Below are positions 23,801-29,090 of a DNA stretch of 64,000 nucleotides, piece after piece. Each line of letters begins with the position of its first letter. Position 1 is the stretch's first letter. The notes under the pieces are model-generated. The model was given only the letters and a program-made list of their open reading frames with translations, had not been told where the DNA came from and did no database searches. The stretch covers positions 62,001 through 126,000 of the forward strand of contig NZ_FODZ01000005.1 in the NCBI RefSeq assembly GCF_900110505.1, in the 5' to 3' direction. The DNA is from Luteibacter sp. UNC138MFCol5.1 (GTDB lineage: Bacteria > Pseudomonadota > Gammaproteobacteria > Xanthomonadales > Rhodanobacteraceae). Position numbers and translations under genes: made by a program.

Positions 23801-24382
23801 CTAAGCCTGCACGGGCACGGACCGCTCCGCGCGCCACGCCCGCAATCCGATGGCGGCGAGGACGACGAAGCCCGCGTAGAGCACCGCCGTGACCGGCAGC
23901 GATTTGTAGAGGTACTCGCCGACGTAGATCACGTCCACCGCGATCCACAGCCACCACGCGGCGGCATGGCGTCGCGCCTGCCACCACTGCGCGACGAGAC
24001 TGAACGCGGTGAGCGCGGCGTCGAGCCAGGGCAGCGACGCATCGGTGTAACGGTGCATGGCATAACCGAGCGCGAGCGCCGCGGCCGTGCCGAGGGCGAG
24101 ATGGGCGATGGCCTCGCGTGGAGCGAGCGCCGCGACGCGGACGTGACCGCTGCCGTCGAGGTTGCGCGTCCATCGATGCCATCCATACAGGATGAGCACG
24201 GCGAAGATCGCCTGCAACAGCGTGTCCGAGTAAAGCCGCGCGTCAACGAAGATCCACGCGTACGCGACCACCGACACCAGGCCCACCGGCCAGCACCACG
24301 GACTGCGCCGCGCCGTCAGCCACACGCCCGCCGCGCTGACCAGCGCGGCGAACAGCTCGAACAGGGACAGCTCAAAGCTCAT
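23801..24382 (-). CDS. pnuT: PnuC-family permease, probably thiamine transporter PnuT
   Basis: 193 residues with about seven membrane helices, typical of PnuC-type vitamin facilitators. The run WCWPVGLVSVVAYAWIFVDA and later WWLWIAVDVIYVGEYLYKSL match the conserved W-rich helices of the family. PnuC members carry nicotinamide riboside; PnuT members carry thiamine. The sequence alone does not separate them, but the gene overlaps the end of the TonB-dependent receptor gene by 11 bp, and that unit is preceded by a TPP riboswitch, so thiamine is the likely cargo. It works as a facilitator that depends on intracellular phosphorylation to trap the vitamin, which fits the nearby kinase gene. Confidence 0.88.
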   Translation of the reverse strand: MSFELSLFELFAALVSAAGVWLTARRSPWCWPVGLVSVVAYAWIFVDARLYSDTLLQAIFAVLILYGWHRWTRNLDGSGHVRVAALAPREAIAHLALGTAAALALGYAMHRYTDASLPWLDAALTAFSLVAQWWQARRHAAAWWLWIAVDVIYVGEYLYKSLPVTAVLYAGFVVLAAIGLRAWRAERSVPVQA

Positions 24383-26564
24383 AGGTCACCGACAGGCGGG
24401 CCAGTCGCGGCATGCCCGGGAACAGATAGCTGTCGCCACCGGAACTGCCCGTGTCGCGCCAGTAGAACCGGTTGAACACGTTATCGACATTCAGGCGCCA
24501 CGTCAGCGCATGGCCGCCCACCTGCGTGGCGAACCGCAGCCCCGCGTCGAACACGTTGTACGCCGGCACGCGCGTGGCGCCGTCGGGTGTCGCCACGTTG
24601 CTGCCCGCGTAGCGCCAGCCGCCCAGGATGGCCAGGCCCGGCGCGAACGGCAGGCTGTAATCGGCGTACACGGCGCTGCGCCAGCGCGGTACGTTGACCA
24701 CCTGGTGGCCTTCGTACGTCGGCGCCCCCGTGTTCTCGGCGCGCGCGCGGATCGCGTTCAGGCTGGCGGTGAGGCGCAGGTTCTCCGTCAGCCGCCCCGC
24801 GAGGTTGAGCTCCACGCCCGTGTGCACCTCCCGGCCCTGCTGCACGAACGTGAAGCCTTCCGCCGTGTCGTCCGGACGCGCGAACTGGTACGCCTGACGG
24901 ATGCGATACACCGCCGCCTGCAGGTCGAGGCCCTCGCCGATGGCGTACTTCACGCCCGCCTCGACCTGACGCGAATGCAACGGCGCCAGCGTGGTGCCGC
25001 CATTCGACGTCCAGTACGGCGCCTCGCGGCCGAGGGACAGGCCCTCGCCGTAGCTCACGTACGTCGTCAACGGCGCGGTCGGCTGCCAGAGTACGGCGGC
25101 CTGCGGCAGCGACTGGCTGCTGCGCGTGTGGCGTTCGATCGCGCCGGTGTCGTCGTAGGCGCTTTCGTCGAGGCGGACGAAGCGCGTGCCGGCGAGCACC
25201 TGCCATTGCTCGCCCAGGTGGATCCGGTCGATCGCGAACAGCGTGCGCTGCCAGCTCGTCAGGCGGCGGACCGACGGACCCGGCTCGTTCGGCGATGGTG
25301 CGAACGACGGCACGACACGGTCATAGATGTTGGCGGTGCCGACGTAGTCGTACACGTAGGCGCGGCGATCGATGGTCCGGCGAAAGCTCGTGGCGCCGAC
25401 GTTGAGCTCGTGGTCGACGCTTCCCGTCGCGAAGCTGCCGGTGACGACGCCGCGCACTTCGTCGTTCTGCCGCGTGTCGTCGGGACTGCGGAAATCGTAG
25501 ACGTCGTAGTCGCCGTTGGGTGCGAAGAAGTAACCGGGCGTGGCGCCGGATGCACAGGATTCGGCGTAGAAGCACCCGTAGGCGAACGCGACGTTGTCGT
25601 CGATGACGGTGTGGCTGTGCCCCGCCGAGACCTGCGCGTTCCAGTTGTCGCTGAAGCGGTAGTTGAAGCGCAGCGACGTATTGCTGGAATGGATGCCCAC
25701 CGGCCGCTGCCACGACTGGTAGCCGAGCAGGCGCGTGCGGCTCGCATGGGCGGGCACCGTCGTGCCCCCGAGCAACTGGTAGCCGGACGCCGAGCGCTGT
25801 CCGCTCGTCTGGTAATCGGTGTCGAGCAGCAGGGTCGCCTTATCGGTGATCTTCCAGTCGGCCGCGATGGAGACGAAACTGCGCCGGCCATCGGCGTGTT
25901 CGATGTAGGAGTGCGTCTTCTCGTTCGCGGCATTGACGCGCAGGCCGAACGACGGCGAGAACCAGGCGCCCAGGTCGAGGGCCTCGTAGTTCGAGCCGTG
26001 CGAATCGGTTCCGATCGTCACGTTATGGACGTCCGCCGGACGCTTGCTGACGTAGTTGACGAGGCCACCGGGCTCGACCACGCCGGCCTCGAGTCCGCCC
26101 AGCCCCTTCAGCACCTCGACGCGCTCCTTGCCTTCGAGCGCGAGGAGCTGCTCCGCCGACATGATCATCCCGTTGAAACGGAACCCGGTCGCGAGGTCGA
26201 GCGGGAAACCGCGGATCGAAACGTCCTGGTAGTAACCCGCCGGCGCGTAGTTGTCGGTGATCGCGGCATCGCCACGCACCAGTTCGCTCAGCGTGCGGGG
26301 CTGGCGATCGTCGATCTGCGCGCGCGTGATGACCGTGATGGCCGCGGGCGTATCGTGCAGCGGCGCGCTGCCGAAGCTGCCGAACGTATCCAGCTGCGAG
26401 TCGGCGGCGCGGTAGCTGTCGGTGGTCGTCGCGTGGACGTCCACGGTGGGCAGCGTGCGCGCCTGCGGGGGCGCGTCGTCCGCGGCGTGCGCCGCGGCGG
26501 CGAACGCAAGGATGGCAAGGGCGAGCGGGGTACGGGCAAGGATCATCGTCGTCTTCGGGTCCAT
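24372..26564 (-). CDS. TonB-dependent outer-membrane receptor, probably for thiamine
   Basis: 730 residues. A signal peptide (about 1-27, ending AAAAHA) leads to a TonB-box-like segment (TLPTVDVHATTT), a plug domain (about 55-165, with LSELVRGDAAITDNYAPAG, ISIRGF-like VSIRGFPLD and VEVLKGLGGLEAG) and a 22-strand barrel ending LARLSVTYEL. The C-terminal residue is Leu rather than the usual Phe. By sequence it belongs to the siderophore-receptor branch, but the TPP riboswitch immediately upstream and the coupled pnuT gene argue for thiamine. I start at ATG 26564; ATG 26546 also gives a good signal peptide. The upstream in-frame ATG at 26603 lies inside a hairpin and is rejected. Confidence 0.88.
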   Translation of the reverse strand: MDPKTTMILARTPLALAILAFAAAAHAADDAPPQARTLPTVDVHATTTDSYRAADSQLDTFGSFGSAPLHDTPAAITVITRAQIDDRQPRTLSELVRGDAAITDNYAPAGYYQDVSIRGFPLDLATGFRFNGMIMSAEQLLALEGKERVEVLKGLGGLEAGVVEPGGLVNYVSKRPADVHNVTIGTDSHGSNYEALDLGAWFSPSFGLRVNAANEKTHSYIEHADGRRSFVSIAADWKITDKATLLLDTDYQTSGQRSASGYQLLGGTTVPAHASRTRLLGYQSWQRPVGIHSSNTSLRFNYRFSDNWNAQVSAGHSHTVIDDNVAFAYGCFYAESCASGATPGYFFAPNGDYDVYDFRSPDDTRQNDEVRGVVTGSFATGSVDHELNVGATSFRRTIDRRAYVYDYVGTANIYDRVVPSFAPSPNEPGPSVRRLTSWQRTLFAIDRIHLGEQWQVLAGTRFVRLDESAYDDTGAIERHTRSSQSLPQAAVLWQPTAPLTTYVSYGEGLSLGREAPYWTSNGGTTLAPLHSRQVEAGVKYAIGEGLDLQAAVYRIRQAYQFARPDDTAEGFTFVQQGREVHTGVELNLAGRLTENLRLTASLNAIRARAENTGAPTYEGHQVVNVPRWRSAVYADYSLPFAPGLAILGGWRYAGSNVATPDGATRVPAYNVFDAGLRFATQVGGHALTWRLNVDNVFNRFYWRDTGSSGGDSYLFPGMPRLARLSVTYEL

Positions 26565-26582
26565 GGACGAAGCGACGGCGAA

Positions 26583-26609
26583 CCACGGGCCCGGCCGGGC
26601 CATCCGTGG
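26583..26609 (-). promoter_or_regulatory. Hairpin between riboswitch and receptor start: candidate expression platform
   Basis: Two nested perfect 6-bp arms (26583-26588 with 26604-26609, and 26589-26594 with 26595-26600) form a very GC-rich hairpin, with a 3-nt bulge that is itself an ATG in frame with the receptor. It starts just after the 3' arm of the TPP aptamer and ends 19 nt before the receptor ATG. It has no T-run, so translational control or Rho is more likely than intrinsic termination. Confidence 0.5.
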
Positions 26610-26611
26610 AT

Positions 26612-26697
26612 CTGCAAGCTCCCTACGCCGGTACTAACCGGGTCAGGTTCCAAGGGACTCTCTCAGCCCGGCGATCGCCGGGCACCCCCGCTTCTAG
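26612..26697 (-). promoter_or_regulatory. TPP (THI-element) riboswitch
   Basis: On the minus strand the conserved THI elements appear in order: P1 5' arm AAGC (26690-26693), a GC-rich P3 hairpin (26668-26685), CTGAGA (26661-26666), ACCTGA (26643-26648), GGTTAGTACCGGC, GCGTAGGGA (26620-26628) and the P1 3' arm GCTT (26616-26619). This is a full thiamine pyrophosphate aptamer. It lies 48 nt before the TonB receptor start and should switch off receptor and pnuT when TPP is plentiful. It begins about 9 nt after the stop codon of the kinase gene, so the kinase transcript must run into it. Confidence 0.97.
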
Positions 26698-26702
26698 AAC
26701 CG

Positions 26703-27833
26703 TTATTGAACCACAATCCGGTCGAGGAACGTACGGCCGTGTCCGGTGGCGAACCAGCGCGCGTGGCCGAGCAGGAACGTGTGGTAGGCCACGTCCGCAT
26801 GGTCGCGGCGGCCGGTGATGCCCTCGAAGTATTCGACCTCGGAGAGGGCGAAGTCGATGTGCACCAGCGGCAGCAGATCGACGAGGAGCGCGAGGTCGCC
26901 CGCCGCGAGCGGCCGCACGGACCGGTAGCCGTCGACGATCGCGCGGGCGAGATCCGCTCGCCCGATGTCGCCGCGATCGACGTCGAGCCAGGCGATCGCG
27001 TTGCGCTCGATCGCGGTGGCGAGGTCGAACAGCGCGAACGTCTCCGCCGAGAGGCCGAGGTCGAGGACATCGGTGATCGAGGCGTCGTCGCCGGCGCCGC
27101 TCCAGCAGAGATTGGAGACGTGCCAGTCGCCATGGGTCCACAGGCGGGCCTGCATCGCGATGCCGCCGACGGCGCGTGCGTGCCATGGCGCTATCGCACC
27201 GGCGAGTTCGGTTTTCCAGTCGCGCCCCTGCAGGTAGCGCGCGAGCGCCGGGCGTGAAGGAAGCTGCGCGTCGATGGCACGAGCCGGTTCGGCCGCCGCG
27301 AGGATTTCCGCGCGCGCGACGAGAATGTGCGTCTCGCGCTGCGGTGCCTTGTAGTCGCGCGCGGCGTCATGCAGACGGGCGAGCATGGCGCCCGCCGCGC
27401 GCGCGTGGTGCTCGCCATCGATCGGCGACCAGGAATACGCGTCGCGGTAGACATCCAGGCCTCGCGCCGCCTCGTGCACTTCGTAGACCCAGTCGCCGGC
27501 GGAAAGCACGGACGTGGCGTCCCCTGCTCGCACGATGCGCGGTACGGGCATACCGCTTTCGCGCAGGTGCGTCGCGAAGCGATGTTCCTCGGCGAGCGTG
27601 TGTTCGTCCCGGACGGAACGATGGTGCCGCTTCACGAAGCAGCGCCCCCGCTCCGTCGTCACCAGGGCCGCCGCGGACAGGGGTCGCGGGCTGCGCCAGT
27701 CCAGCGAGCGAAGCGTGCCGAGCGACGGGAGCCGTTCGACGATCGCGGCGAGTTCGTCGCGACGCAGGGCCGGCCAGTCGGGCTCGAGCTGGTCGCCAGC
27801 GAGGCCGTGGGCGAGATGGGGGGCGTGAGTCAT
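26703..27833 (-). CDS. APH-fold phosphotransferase, possible thiamine kinase
   Basis: 376 residues of the aminoglycoside-phosphotransferase/choline kinase fold. The N-lobe holds RGRCFVKRHHRSVRDEHTLA (Lys for ATP), the catalytic loop is WTHGDWHVSNLCW (HGDxHxxN), and ITDVLDLGLS supplies the metal-binding Asp. The family includes ThiK-type thiamine kinases, homoserine and methylthioribose kinases. Its stop codon lies about 9 nt before the TPP riboswitch that leads into the thiamine receptor and permease genes, so I infer that it phosphorylates imported thiamine and traps it. TAAAAT lies exactly 6 nt before the ATG with no ribosome site: a leaderless start is likely. Confidence 0.8.
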   Translation of the reverse strand: MTHAPHLAHGLAGDQLEPDWPALRRDELAAIVERLPSLGTLRSLDWRSPRPLSAAALVTTERGRCFVKRHHRSVRDEHTLAEEHRFATHLRESGMPVPRIVRAGDATSVLSAGDWVYEVHEAARGLDVYRDAYSWSPIDGEHHARAAGAMLARLHDAARDYKAPQRETHILVARAEILAAAEPARAIDAQLPSRPALARYLQGRDWKTELAGAIAPWHARAVGGIAMQARLWTHGDWHVSNLCWSGAGDDASITDVLDLGLSAETFALFDLATAIERNAIAWLDVDRGDIGRADLARAIVDGYRSVRPLAAGDLALLVDLLPLVHIDFALSEVEYFEGITGRRDHADVAYHTFLLGHARWFATGHGRTFLDRIVVQ

Positions 27834-27965
27834 CCCGGGATTTTAGTGCGGGACGCGGTCCCGTACGGCCCGGTCGGGCGCCCTGGCGGCAGTCCCGGAC
27901 CGGCGGCAAGGGGGTCGGGAGGCTCGCGCAGCCGACGCTCAAGAACAAACGGGGCCCTTAATCGG

Positions 27966-27999
27966 CAAATCCTTCAAAAACGTGTCCAATCCATGGCGA
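27966..27999. repeat. Copy B of an unexplained 34-35 bp repeat
   Basis: It matches copy A at 23686-23720 in the blocks CAAATCCTT and GTCCAAnCCnnGGCGA, in the same orientation. The two copies bracket the thiamine cassette (23801-27833). It lies about 140 bp before the MASE1 gene. Confidence 0.5.
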
Positions 28000-28139
28000 A
28001 CGGGCCGATATACCTTCAGACTACCCACACGGGAGCGGGTGTGTGACAGGGGTCCGCGTGGCTCCGGCCAGCCGACGAAACGCGCCAGACAGGCGAACGA
28101 TCAATCATGTAAGGACGAGATCGACCTAGGGGGACTACC

Positions 28140-29090
28140 GTGGGCGGAATGAACAGGGACGCGTTGGTGTGGGGTCGATACGTAGCCGTCGCGGGCGCCT
28201 ACGCGGCCTGTTACGAGCTGACCCGCAATTTTTCGTTCTCGCACTGGATGCTCACCGCCGGGCTGCGCATGGCGTGCCTGCTGCTCGTTCCCCGCAGGTT
28301 CTGGCCGGCCCTCGCCGTCGGCGAAGCGCTGCCCATCGCCGAAATGGCCTTCGTGCACATGTCCGACTACGGCGTGGCCTGGGCCGTGGCCAACACCGTT
28401 CCTCCGATCGTCTTCTGCATGCCCATCGTCGCCTGGCTGCAATCGCGCCTGCCGATCATCCGCGTCGGTGGCGAGGTGAACATCGGCATGATCGTCCTGG
28501 CGACGCTGCTGTGCGCGGTGATGAACGCGGCCGAGAACTCGGTCGTGCTGAGCCTCATCCGCATGGACGATGGCTCACCCGCACCCACTGTGACGGCGCA
28601 GATCTTCCTCGCGTGGTTCCTCGGCCTGTACCTCGGCGCGCTCACCCTGACGCCGAGCATCCTCGCCTTGCGTGAACGTCTCGCCGCGCAACCGAAGCGG
28701 ACCCTCACGTGGGACGCCATCCGTCATAGCGCGCTGGCCCGCGACCTGCTCCTCATCGCGGTGCCATCGCTGGCGTTGCTGATGGGTATCGCCTCGCAGA
28801 CCGAAGGCACGACCCTGCAGGTCACCCGCATGGCGATGGCATTACCCGTCGTCGCCCTCACGCTGCGTCATGGCTGGCATGGCACATCGCTCGGCGGTCT
28901 TTTCGCGAGCGTCGCGATGGCATCCACCTCGTTCAGCCTGCTGGATCCCGCGATGATCCAGGCGCAGACGGTGATCGCCTTCGTGCTTTCGACATCGCTG
29001 CTGTTCGGCGTGCGTGTCGCACGTCGCCAGGCGGCCGCAAGACAAGTCCTGCTCGCGCAGGACCTGTCCTCGGGTTTTCATCGCCACTGA
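28140..29090 (+). CDS. Stand-alone MASE1 membrane sensor domain protein
   Basis: 316 residues, about eight membrane helices. The sequence (for example AVGEALPIAEMAFVHMSDYG and LYLGALTLTPSILALRERL) matches the MASE1 sensor domain that usually precedes a histidine kinase, GGDEF or EAL domain. Here the protein ends 30 residues after the last helix (RRQAAARQVLLAQDL) with no output domain, so it is either a stand-alone sensor partner or a truncated one. No kinase frame continues downstream. I choose GTG at 28140 because AGGGGGA lies 5 nt upstream; the ATG at 28149 is too far. Confidence 0.82.
   Translation: MGGMNRDALVWGRYVAVAGAYAACYELTRNFSFSHWMLTAGLRMACLLLVPRRFWPALAVGEALPIAEMAFVHMSDYGVAWAVANTVPPIVFCMPIVAWLQSRLPIIRVGGEVNIGMIVLATLLCAVMNAAENSVVLSLIRMDDGSPAPTVTAQIFLAWFLGLYLGALTLTPSILALRERLAAQPKRTLTWDAIRHSALARDLLLIAVPSLALLMGIASQTEGTTLQVTRMAMALPVVALTLRHGWHGTSLGGLFASVAMASTSFSLLDPAMIQAQTVIAFVLSTSLLFGVRVARRQAAARQVLLAQDLSSGFHRH

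What the first reader, a model, noticed from the sequence alone, without database searches (positions are those of the whole stretch)
26583..27833. TPP riboswitch placed inside an apparent operon, 9 nt after a kinase stop codon
The APH-fold kinase gene ends at 26703 and the P1 arm of the TPP aptamer begins at 26693. There is no room for a separate promoter unless it lies within the kinase gene. Either the kinase mRNA has a riboswitch as its 3' end, so that TPP would change receptor and permease expression but not kinase expression, or a promoter is hidden in the kinase coding region. The kinase itself is a natural partner, because it can trap imported thiamine. I know of receptor-PnuT-kinase groups in other bacteria, but not this internal arrangement with an APH-fold enzyme.
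Basis: partly seen in the sequence, partly recalled or inferred. Interest (0 to 1): 0.72.

Follow-up and report, generated by a model that had tools for sequence, protein, structure and literature searches.

The report
Vitamin B1 uptake switch beside kinase
A bacterial RNA switch that senses vitamin B1 and probably controls two vitamin-uptake genes sits right behind a probable vitamin B1 kinase gene, and appears to have its own start signal that shares a letter with the kinase's stop codon, so it is a compact but largely ordinary arrangement.

Summary
A TPP aptamer (RF00059, 69.1 bits) lies on the minus strand, its P1 beginning 9 nt past an APH-fold kinase's stop codon, before a TonB receptor gene and a PnuT-type permease gene. 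Comparison largely resolves the missing promoter. A promoter-like hexamer TnnAAT with TG just before it ends 7-12 nt before P1 in 82 of 84 non-redundant aptamers, whether the kinase stop is adjacent or about 300 nt away, and in the set's 5 thiC aptamers, which have no kinase upstream. In the window it is TGGTTCAAT (26713-26705); its last T is the first base of the kinase stop TAA. Kinase-TPP-receptor-permease order holds in 77 of 80 named loci. Kinase and this permease type co-occur in 26 of 26 genomes; neither appeared in the other 125. The host has ThiL but no match to the ThiK or thiamine pyrophosphokinase models. Alternative pairings suggest translational control of the receptor. The kinase has its own promoter-like box and no riboswitch found before it. 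No transcript data were available; read-through is not excluded.

The parts
26703..27833 (-). APH-fold kinase, 376 aa, probable thiamine kinase; catalytic HGDWHVSN loop and VLD.G motif
   Evidence: PF01636 74.9 bits; AlphaFold model pLDDT 90.5, best VIA-align match homoserine kinase 2ppq Z 26.8; found with the PnuT-type permease in 26 of 26 genomes. Substrate inferred.
27840..27845 (-). promoter-like -10 box TAAAAT of the kinase, 6 nt before its ATG (leaderless mRNA inferred)
   Evidence: TAnA(A/C)T exactly 6 nt before ATG in 9 of the 11 closest loci, by eye; position; wider motif control
26705..26713 (-). extended -10-like element TGGTTCAAT (hexamer 26710-26705) of the riboswitch transcript; its last T is the first base of the kinase stop
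   Evidence: TnnAAT 7-12 nt before P1 with TG 1-3 nt upstream in 82 of 84 non-redundant aptamers; the hexamer in 0-1 of 84 at control offsets
26703..26705 (-). kinase stop codon TAA, sharing one base with the -10-like hexamer
26603..26699 (-). TPP riboswitch aptamer (RF00059 match); P1 5' strand GAAGC from 26694
26583..26609 (-). hairpin of variable sequence between aptamer and switching strand (CCACGG...CCGTGG)
   Evidence: predicted fold of the window; a hairpin at the same place in relatives only by eye
26566..26579 (-). switching strand GCCGTCGCTTCGTC: can pair with P1 5' strand GAAGCG or with the receptor start region
   Evidence: CGCTTC present in 79 of 79 receptor riboswitches of the set; GAAGCA with TGCTTC in thiC loci L012 and L022
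26544..26556 (-). receptor translation start region GAAGACGACG-ATG (start 26546), sequestered in the proposed OFF fold
24372..26546 (-). TonB-dependent receptor, probable thiamine receptor (start re-set from 26603)
   Evidence: TIGR01783 397.6 bits; start by comparison
23801..24382 (-). PnuC/PnuT-family permease, probable thiamine permease, overlapping the receptor gene end by 11 nt
   Evidence: PF04973 177.1 bits; homologue in the same place in 77 of 80 named loci

Best explanation
This is a TPP-riboswitch-controlled thiamine uptake unit (receptor, then PnuT-type permease) placed directly behind a separately promoted APH-fold kinase. Its transcript starts at an extended -10-like element, TGGTTCAAT, at the kinase stop codon, a few bases before the aptamer (element conserved: shown; start site: inferred). 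When TPP is scarce, the P1 5' strand GAAGCG pairs with the downstream CGCTTC and leaves the receptor start free. When TPP binds, P1 forms, the released CGTCGCTTCGTC strand pairs with GAAGACGACG before the receptor ATG, and translation falls (alternative pairings: shown as complementarity and forced folds; switching: inferred). The kinase, transcribed from its own box near 27840, is not under this riboswitch and traps imported thiamine as thiamine monophosphate for ThiL (inferred). The kinase gene abuts the riboswitch because its ORF reads into the promoter element and uses the element's own TAA/TAG as stop, as in several Luteibacter relatives.
For: Aptamer. Hexamer TnnAAT with TG 1-3 nt before it, 7-12 nt before P1, in 77 of 79 aptamers behind a kinase and 5 of 5 thiC aptamers (thiC identity), while the stop-to-P1 distance runs from -2 to above 300; the hexamer alone at control offsets gives 0-1 of 84. 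With TG at exactly one base before the hexamer the count is 68 of 84, and 0 of 84 at every control offset. Nine of 9 thiC loci with the AAGC-type P1 show it by eye (L012 and L022 are near-duplicates). ORF runs into the element in 8 of 76 loci. Pairings: CGCTTC in 79 of 79 receptor riboswitches, a matching A-T change in thiC loci L012 and L022; in thiC loci L007 and L012 the free minimum fold already contains the P1-strand pairing. The window's P1-forced fold (-68.9 kcal/mol) contains the start-sequestering hairpin, and the anti-forced fold (-70.2) lies close to it. On average 8.4 of 13 core bases pair downstream, against 5.6 with shuffled tails. Kinase-permease co-occurrence in 26 of 26 genomes, neither in the other 125. 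ThiL present (354.9 bits), TPK and ThiK models without a match.
Against: No transcript data. The element has no -35 partner, fails the strict sigma-70 scan (0 hits), and rarely has A at position 2 of the hexamer (2 of 82). TGNTNNAAT alone is at chance level in the window (6 found, 6.31 expected). Two of 84 aptamers (L044, L127) miss the hexamer, and 14 of the 82 have TG at another spacing only. The thiC aptamer of the host itself (L001) has another P1 and no such element at that place. The unforced fold of the 175-nt window leader (-79.8) is a third state: it has the sequestering hairpin without P1. GAAGCG and CGCTTC do not vary among the receptor loci tabulated, so they show no covariation there. 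Two of 9 thiC loci (L010, L031) lack the antiswitch partner and two (L016, L025) keep 5 of 6 bases. Three genomes keep kinase, receptor and permease without a TPP match. No intrinsic terminator was found after the kinase, so one long mRNA is possible. The kinase profile aligns with ThiK over 16 columns only.
Confidence: 0.8

Rival explanations
1. One operon: kinase, riboswitch, receptor and permease are one mRNA from the kinase promoter; the riboswitch acts only on the genes behind it.
For: 8 nt gap in the window; no intrinsic terminator-like site in 26400-28200, and only 1 of 27 longer gaps in relatives has one (L076); in L054, L056 and L057 kinase and receptor lie close with no riboswitch and no such element seen.
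Against: The conserved element sits before the aptamer at a near-fixed distance whatever the distance to the kinase, and also before thiC aptamers without the kinase.
Confidence: 0.12
2. The riboswitch works as the 3' end of the kinase mRNA and changes kinase mRNA stability or termination with TPP.
For: Geometry in the window only.
Against: No terminator-like site in or near the aptamer; gap length varies up to about 300 nt in relatives; the pairings seen point to the receptor start.
Confidence: 0.05
3. The conserved element is a binding site for a regulator, or part of the RNA, and not a -10 box.
For: Weak second position of the hexamer, extra conserved TTC upstream, no -35.
Against: Distance to the aptamer of 7-12 nt fits a -10 box followed at once by the RNA start; variants include TATAAT and TACAAT, one locus each.
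Confidence: 0.12
4. The kinase acts on another substrate (homoserine, an amino alcohol, a sugar) and is linked for another reason.
For: Best structural match is homoserine kinase 2ppq (Z 26.8); weak NCBIfam homoserine kinase score (39.6 bits).
Against: 39.6 bits against a cut-off of 271; strict linkage to the permease and close linkage to the TPP switch.
Confidence: 0.2

Closest known systems
OMthi-pnuT-tnr3 units of Bacteroidetes (PMC5613172, passages seen)
   Same: TPP riboswitch, TonB-dependent thiamine receptor, PnuT, and a gene that phosphorylates thiamine, side by side in most genomes of that study
   Different: there the phosphorylating enzyme (tnr3) belongs to a riboswitch-controlled operon; here an APH-fold kinase lies upstream of the riboswitch with its own promoter-like box
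Translational TPP riboswitches of gammaproteobacteria such as E. coli thiM (recalled)
   Same: aptamer near the start of the mRNA, P1 strand in alternative pairing, start region sequestered
   Different: sequence of the platform; I saw no clear Shine-Dalgarno in the window; not tested with TPP
ThiK thiamine kinase of E. coli (TIGR02721)
   Same: kinase with an HxDxHxxN loop, proposed substrate
   Different: the window kinase has no TIGR02721 match at E 0.01; profile comparison aligns 16 columns only

Membership tests
TPP riboswitch (RF00059) | covariance-model score above gathering cut-off | tested here: met
   69.1 against 54.3 bits
TPP riboswitch (RF00059) | binds TPP and changes expression | not testable with these tools
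   needs in-line probing or a reporter
Translational-type riboswitch | alternative pairing that frees or hides the start region | tested here: inconclusive
   complementarity and forced folds fit, but the free fold of the window leader is a third state
Transcription-terminating riboswitch | intrinsic terminator in the expression platform | tested here: not met
   0 terminator-like sites in 26400-28200
sigma-70 promoter | -35 and -10 hexamers at 16-18 nt, A at position 2 of the -10 | tested here: not met
   0 found; extended -10-like element only
ThiK (TIGR02721 / NF007620) | score above the curated cut-off | tested here: not met
   neither model among the window kinase's matches at E 0.01; no TIGR02721 match in the genome
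Homoserine kinase (NF003558) | score above 271 bits | tested here: not met
   39.6 bits
APH family (PF01636) | Pfam cut-off, catalytic HxD....N loop and second D | tested here: met
   74.9 against 23.2 bits; H234, D236, N241, D258 invariant in 40 sequences; fold matches to APH and choline kinases
Thiamine kinase (activity) | phosphorylates thiamine | not testable with these tools
   needs an assay

The most novel reading that the evidence does not exclude
Read-through kinase mRNAs carry the TPP aptamer in their 3' untranslated end, so that TPP also tunes the kinase (stability or RNA processing) in bacteria, while a second set of transcripts starts at the stop-codon promoter.
Probability: 0.06. 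Interest if true: 0.65.

Novelty: new variant of a known kind. Interest (0 to 1): 0.3.

Why it matters
It largely resolves an apparent riboswitch-in-operon puzzle, gives a concrete promoter-in-stop-codon example that one 5'-end map can test, and points to a distinct APH-fold family as the probable missing thiamine kinase of Luteibacter, Rhodanobacter, Stenotrophomonas and relatives. Nothing here departs from known mechanisms.

Tried and rejected
A second TPP aptamer before the kinase: none found. Intrinsic terminator between kinase and aptamer: none in the window, 1 of 27 longer gaps (L076). Canonical sigma-70 promoter in 26400-28200: none. Sequence relatives of the kinase in the PDB: phmmer none at E 0.1; profile search one weak hit, homoserine kinase 2ppq, E 0.0012. 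ThiK aligned over 16 columns only; no ThiK entry appears in the 50 rows shown of each fold list, which does not exclude it.

Literature, by listings only and only as far as shown: PnuT/thiamin/TonB/riboswitch, 20 of 36 shown; Xanthomonas and TPP riboswitch, 20 of 44; thiamine kinase with PnuT, 2 of 2; six-term search, 1 of 1; dRNA-seq with Xanthomonas, 12 of 87; Stenotrophomonas with TPP riboswitch, 10 of 10; riboswitch with stop-codon overlap, 0. In these rows I saw no paper on this arrangement. Passages seen: PMC5613172, PMC9870897 (about an alga's riboswitch, not relevant), PMC10409787 ([quoted passage not shown] The 2002 comparative study of thiamin genes in procaryotes that I recall is not held, so a prior description there cannot be excluded.

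Rows dropped and built-in bias: the 84-aptamer set needs xAAGC(G/A)GGGG as P1. Of 119 receptor-linked TPP hits none was lost by this, but thiC/thiM-type loci L001, L003 and L013 fall out for another P1 and do not show the element in the printed sequence, L004 shows no such P1, and L016, L024 and L031 were missed by the first pattern and looked at by eye later. Forty-two of 126 records were removed as near-duplicates. The invariant T and AAT columns are so by selection. One search selects on a core holding TCGCTTCG, and P1 on AAGC, so its invariance is partly by selection, though all 79 receptor loci hold the core. In one search, 7 of 84 rows were dropped (5 thiC loci without the core pattern; L074 and L116 without a start found), and for the window the script took the upstream ATG (26564), so its own row scored 0. 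The stop-to-P1 figure of 1284 is L116, whose ORF has an early in-frame stop. In some searches the genomes without a match are only partly listed; I take the two samples of 151 as the same from their shared handles and matching counts. One named record (L129) bears a Bacillus subtilis title, which I take for a mislabelled or mixed assembly.

Full report
What is there. On the minus strand the order is kinase (27833-26703), TPP aptamer (26699-26603), TonB-dependent receptor, and PnuC/PnuT-type permease (24382-23801). The aptamer scores 69.1 bits against a gathering score of 54.3. GAAGC of P1 starts at 26694, 9 nt past the last base of the kinase stop at 26703. The closest named relatives are Luteibacter loci (kinase 64-71% and receptor 83-90% identical in L058-L066), so the genome is most probably a Luteibacter (inference).

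How general it is. Of 122 places that encode a relative, the best 80 were kept. Of these 80, 78 have a TPP aptamer behind the kinase, all 78 of these have the receptor, and 77 have all four parts in this order on one strand. L069 and L106 are cut by contig ends; L098 has no TPP match in the 556 nt left on its contig. No named locus has a second TPP aptamer by the pattern used. In 151 genomes of the order, 26 have the kinase. The same 26 have a permease of this type (176.9 bits or more), on the same contig and strand, about 2.3-2.9 kb away by the printed places; the next best permease in any genome scores 123.1 bits. Among these 26, 23 have the aptamer; L054, L056 and L057 have none, also at a permissive threshold.

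Where transcription of the switch probably starts. Before the aptamer lies a conserved element, most often CGTGNTTCAATA. Among 84 non-redundant aptamers with the AAGC-type P1, 82 have TnnAAT ending 7-12 nt before P1, each with TG one to three bases before it: 77 of 79 behind a kinase and 5 of 5 before thiC. The hexamer test shifted by 20 to 100 nt upstream or 60 nt downstream gives 0 or 1 of 84. With TG at exactly one base the count is 68 of 84, and 0 of 84 at every shift. The kinase stop, in contrast, lies from 2 nt inside P1 to above 300 nt before it. By eye, 9 of 9 thiC loci with this P1 type have the element; that they are thiC was checked by model. No kinase match lies in the roughly 1.5 kb before them. 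The element is therefore tied to the aptamer, not to the kinase. It looks like an extended -10 box, and one locus (L093) has TATAAT. Against a plain sigma-70 box: no -35, A at position 2 in 2 of 82, no hit in the strict scan, and chance-level frequency of the bare motif in the window. The host's own thiC aptamer (L001) has another P1 and lacks the element.

Why it touches the kinase. In 8 of 76 loci the kinase ORF runs into the element. In six of them, the window included, the last codons are (G/C/T)TT-CAA-TAR: the element itself supplies the kinase's last residues and its stop codon. In sister species a TGA stops the kinase just before the element. The simplest history is loss of that TGA, with the element's own TAA/TAG serving as the new stop (inference). 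In the window, T26705 is both the last base of TTCAAT and the first base of TAA.

The kinase's own start. TAAAAT (27845-27840) ends 6 nt before the kinase ATG. A TAnA(A/C)T box at exactly that place is seen in 9 of the 11 closest loci (window, L058-L066, L068; not in L058 and L059), by eye. In the wider set, (T/G)ATAAT occurs within 60 nt upstream of the ATG in 34 of 76, against 0 of 76 at 60-120 nt; a broader motif gives 55 against 3. A leaderless kinase mRNA is inferred for the window.

How the switch probably works. The P1 5' strand GAAGCG is complementary to CGCTTC in the downstream strand in all 77 receptor riboswitches tabulated. Because this never varies there, and the patterns select for part of it, it is not evidence by itself. 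In thiC loci of the family the six-base match is kept in 5 of 9, among them GAAGCA with TGCTTC in two near-identical loci (L012, L022); two keep 5 bases and two keep none. In L007 and L012 the free minimum fold already contains this pairing. The same downstream strand is complementary to the region before the receptor ATG: GAAGACGACG in the window, GACGAAG or GACGAAT in others. On average 8.4 of 13 core bases pair downstream, against 5.6 with shuffled tails, and 59 of 77 loci have 7 or more. In the window the two forced states differ by 1.3 kcal/mol without ligand, and the P1-forced state contains the sequestering hairpin. The unforced minimum of that 175-nt piece is a third fold, with the sequestering hairpin but without P1, so the energies show only that both states are possible. 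No terminator-like site was found. The receptor start is best placed at 26546.

What the kinase does. It has the APH/choline-kinase fold (model pLDDT 90.5; best match homoserine kinase 2ppq, Z 26.8, rmsd 3.8, 304 aligned) and invariant catalytic residues in 40 sequences. It does not reach the ThiK or homoserine-kinase models, and aligns with E. coli ThiK over 16 columns only. The genome has ThiL, no thiamine pyrophosphokinase match and no ThiK match, so thiamine salvage lacks a known kinase unless this protein supplies it. Linkage makes thiamine kinase the best guess (about 0.75); it is not shown.

Relation to known systems. Bacteroidetes carry OMthi, pnuT and tnr3 under TPP riboswitches, in most genomes of that study as one operon (PMC5613172, passages). 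Here the same functions appear with another kinase, placed outside the switch. That is a variant of a known kind.

Verdict. Observation confirmed; the promoter question is answered, by comparison only, in favour of a conserved promoter-like element at the kinase stop; the rest is ordinary thiamine biology. Interest 0.3.

Noticed in passing
L054, L056, L057: Three genomes keep kinase and receptor side by side (permease near) but have no TPP match, an apparent natural loss of the switch.
   Followed up: partly
window 28140-29090 +: A 316-aa MASE1-domain protein with no output domain found (PF05231), divergent from the kinase.
   Followed up: no
window 27840-27845 -: Promoter-like TAAAAT 6 nt before the kinase ATG suggests a leaderless kinase mRNA.
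   Followed up: partly
L001 (own genome, contig C7): The genome's second TPP aptamer, before thiC, has a different P1 and lacks the TG-N-TnnAAT element at that place.
   Followed up: partly
window 26603-26546 -: The longest receptor ORF starts inside the aptamer match; annotation from its first ATG would be 19 codons too long.
   Followed up: yes
L090: In this Rhodanobacter assembly the kinase ORF overlaps the element in another frame and its TGA lies at the first bases of P1.
   Followed up: partly
L129: A record titled Bacillus subtilis carries the Stenotrophomonas-like locus; probably a mislabelled or mixed assembly.
   Followed up: no
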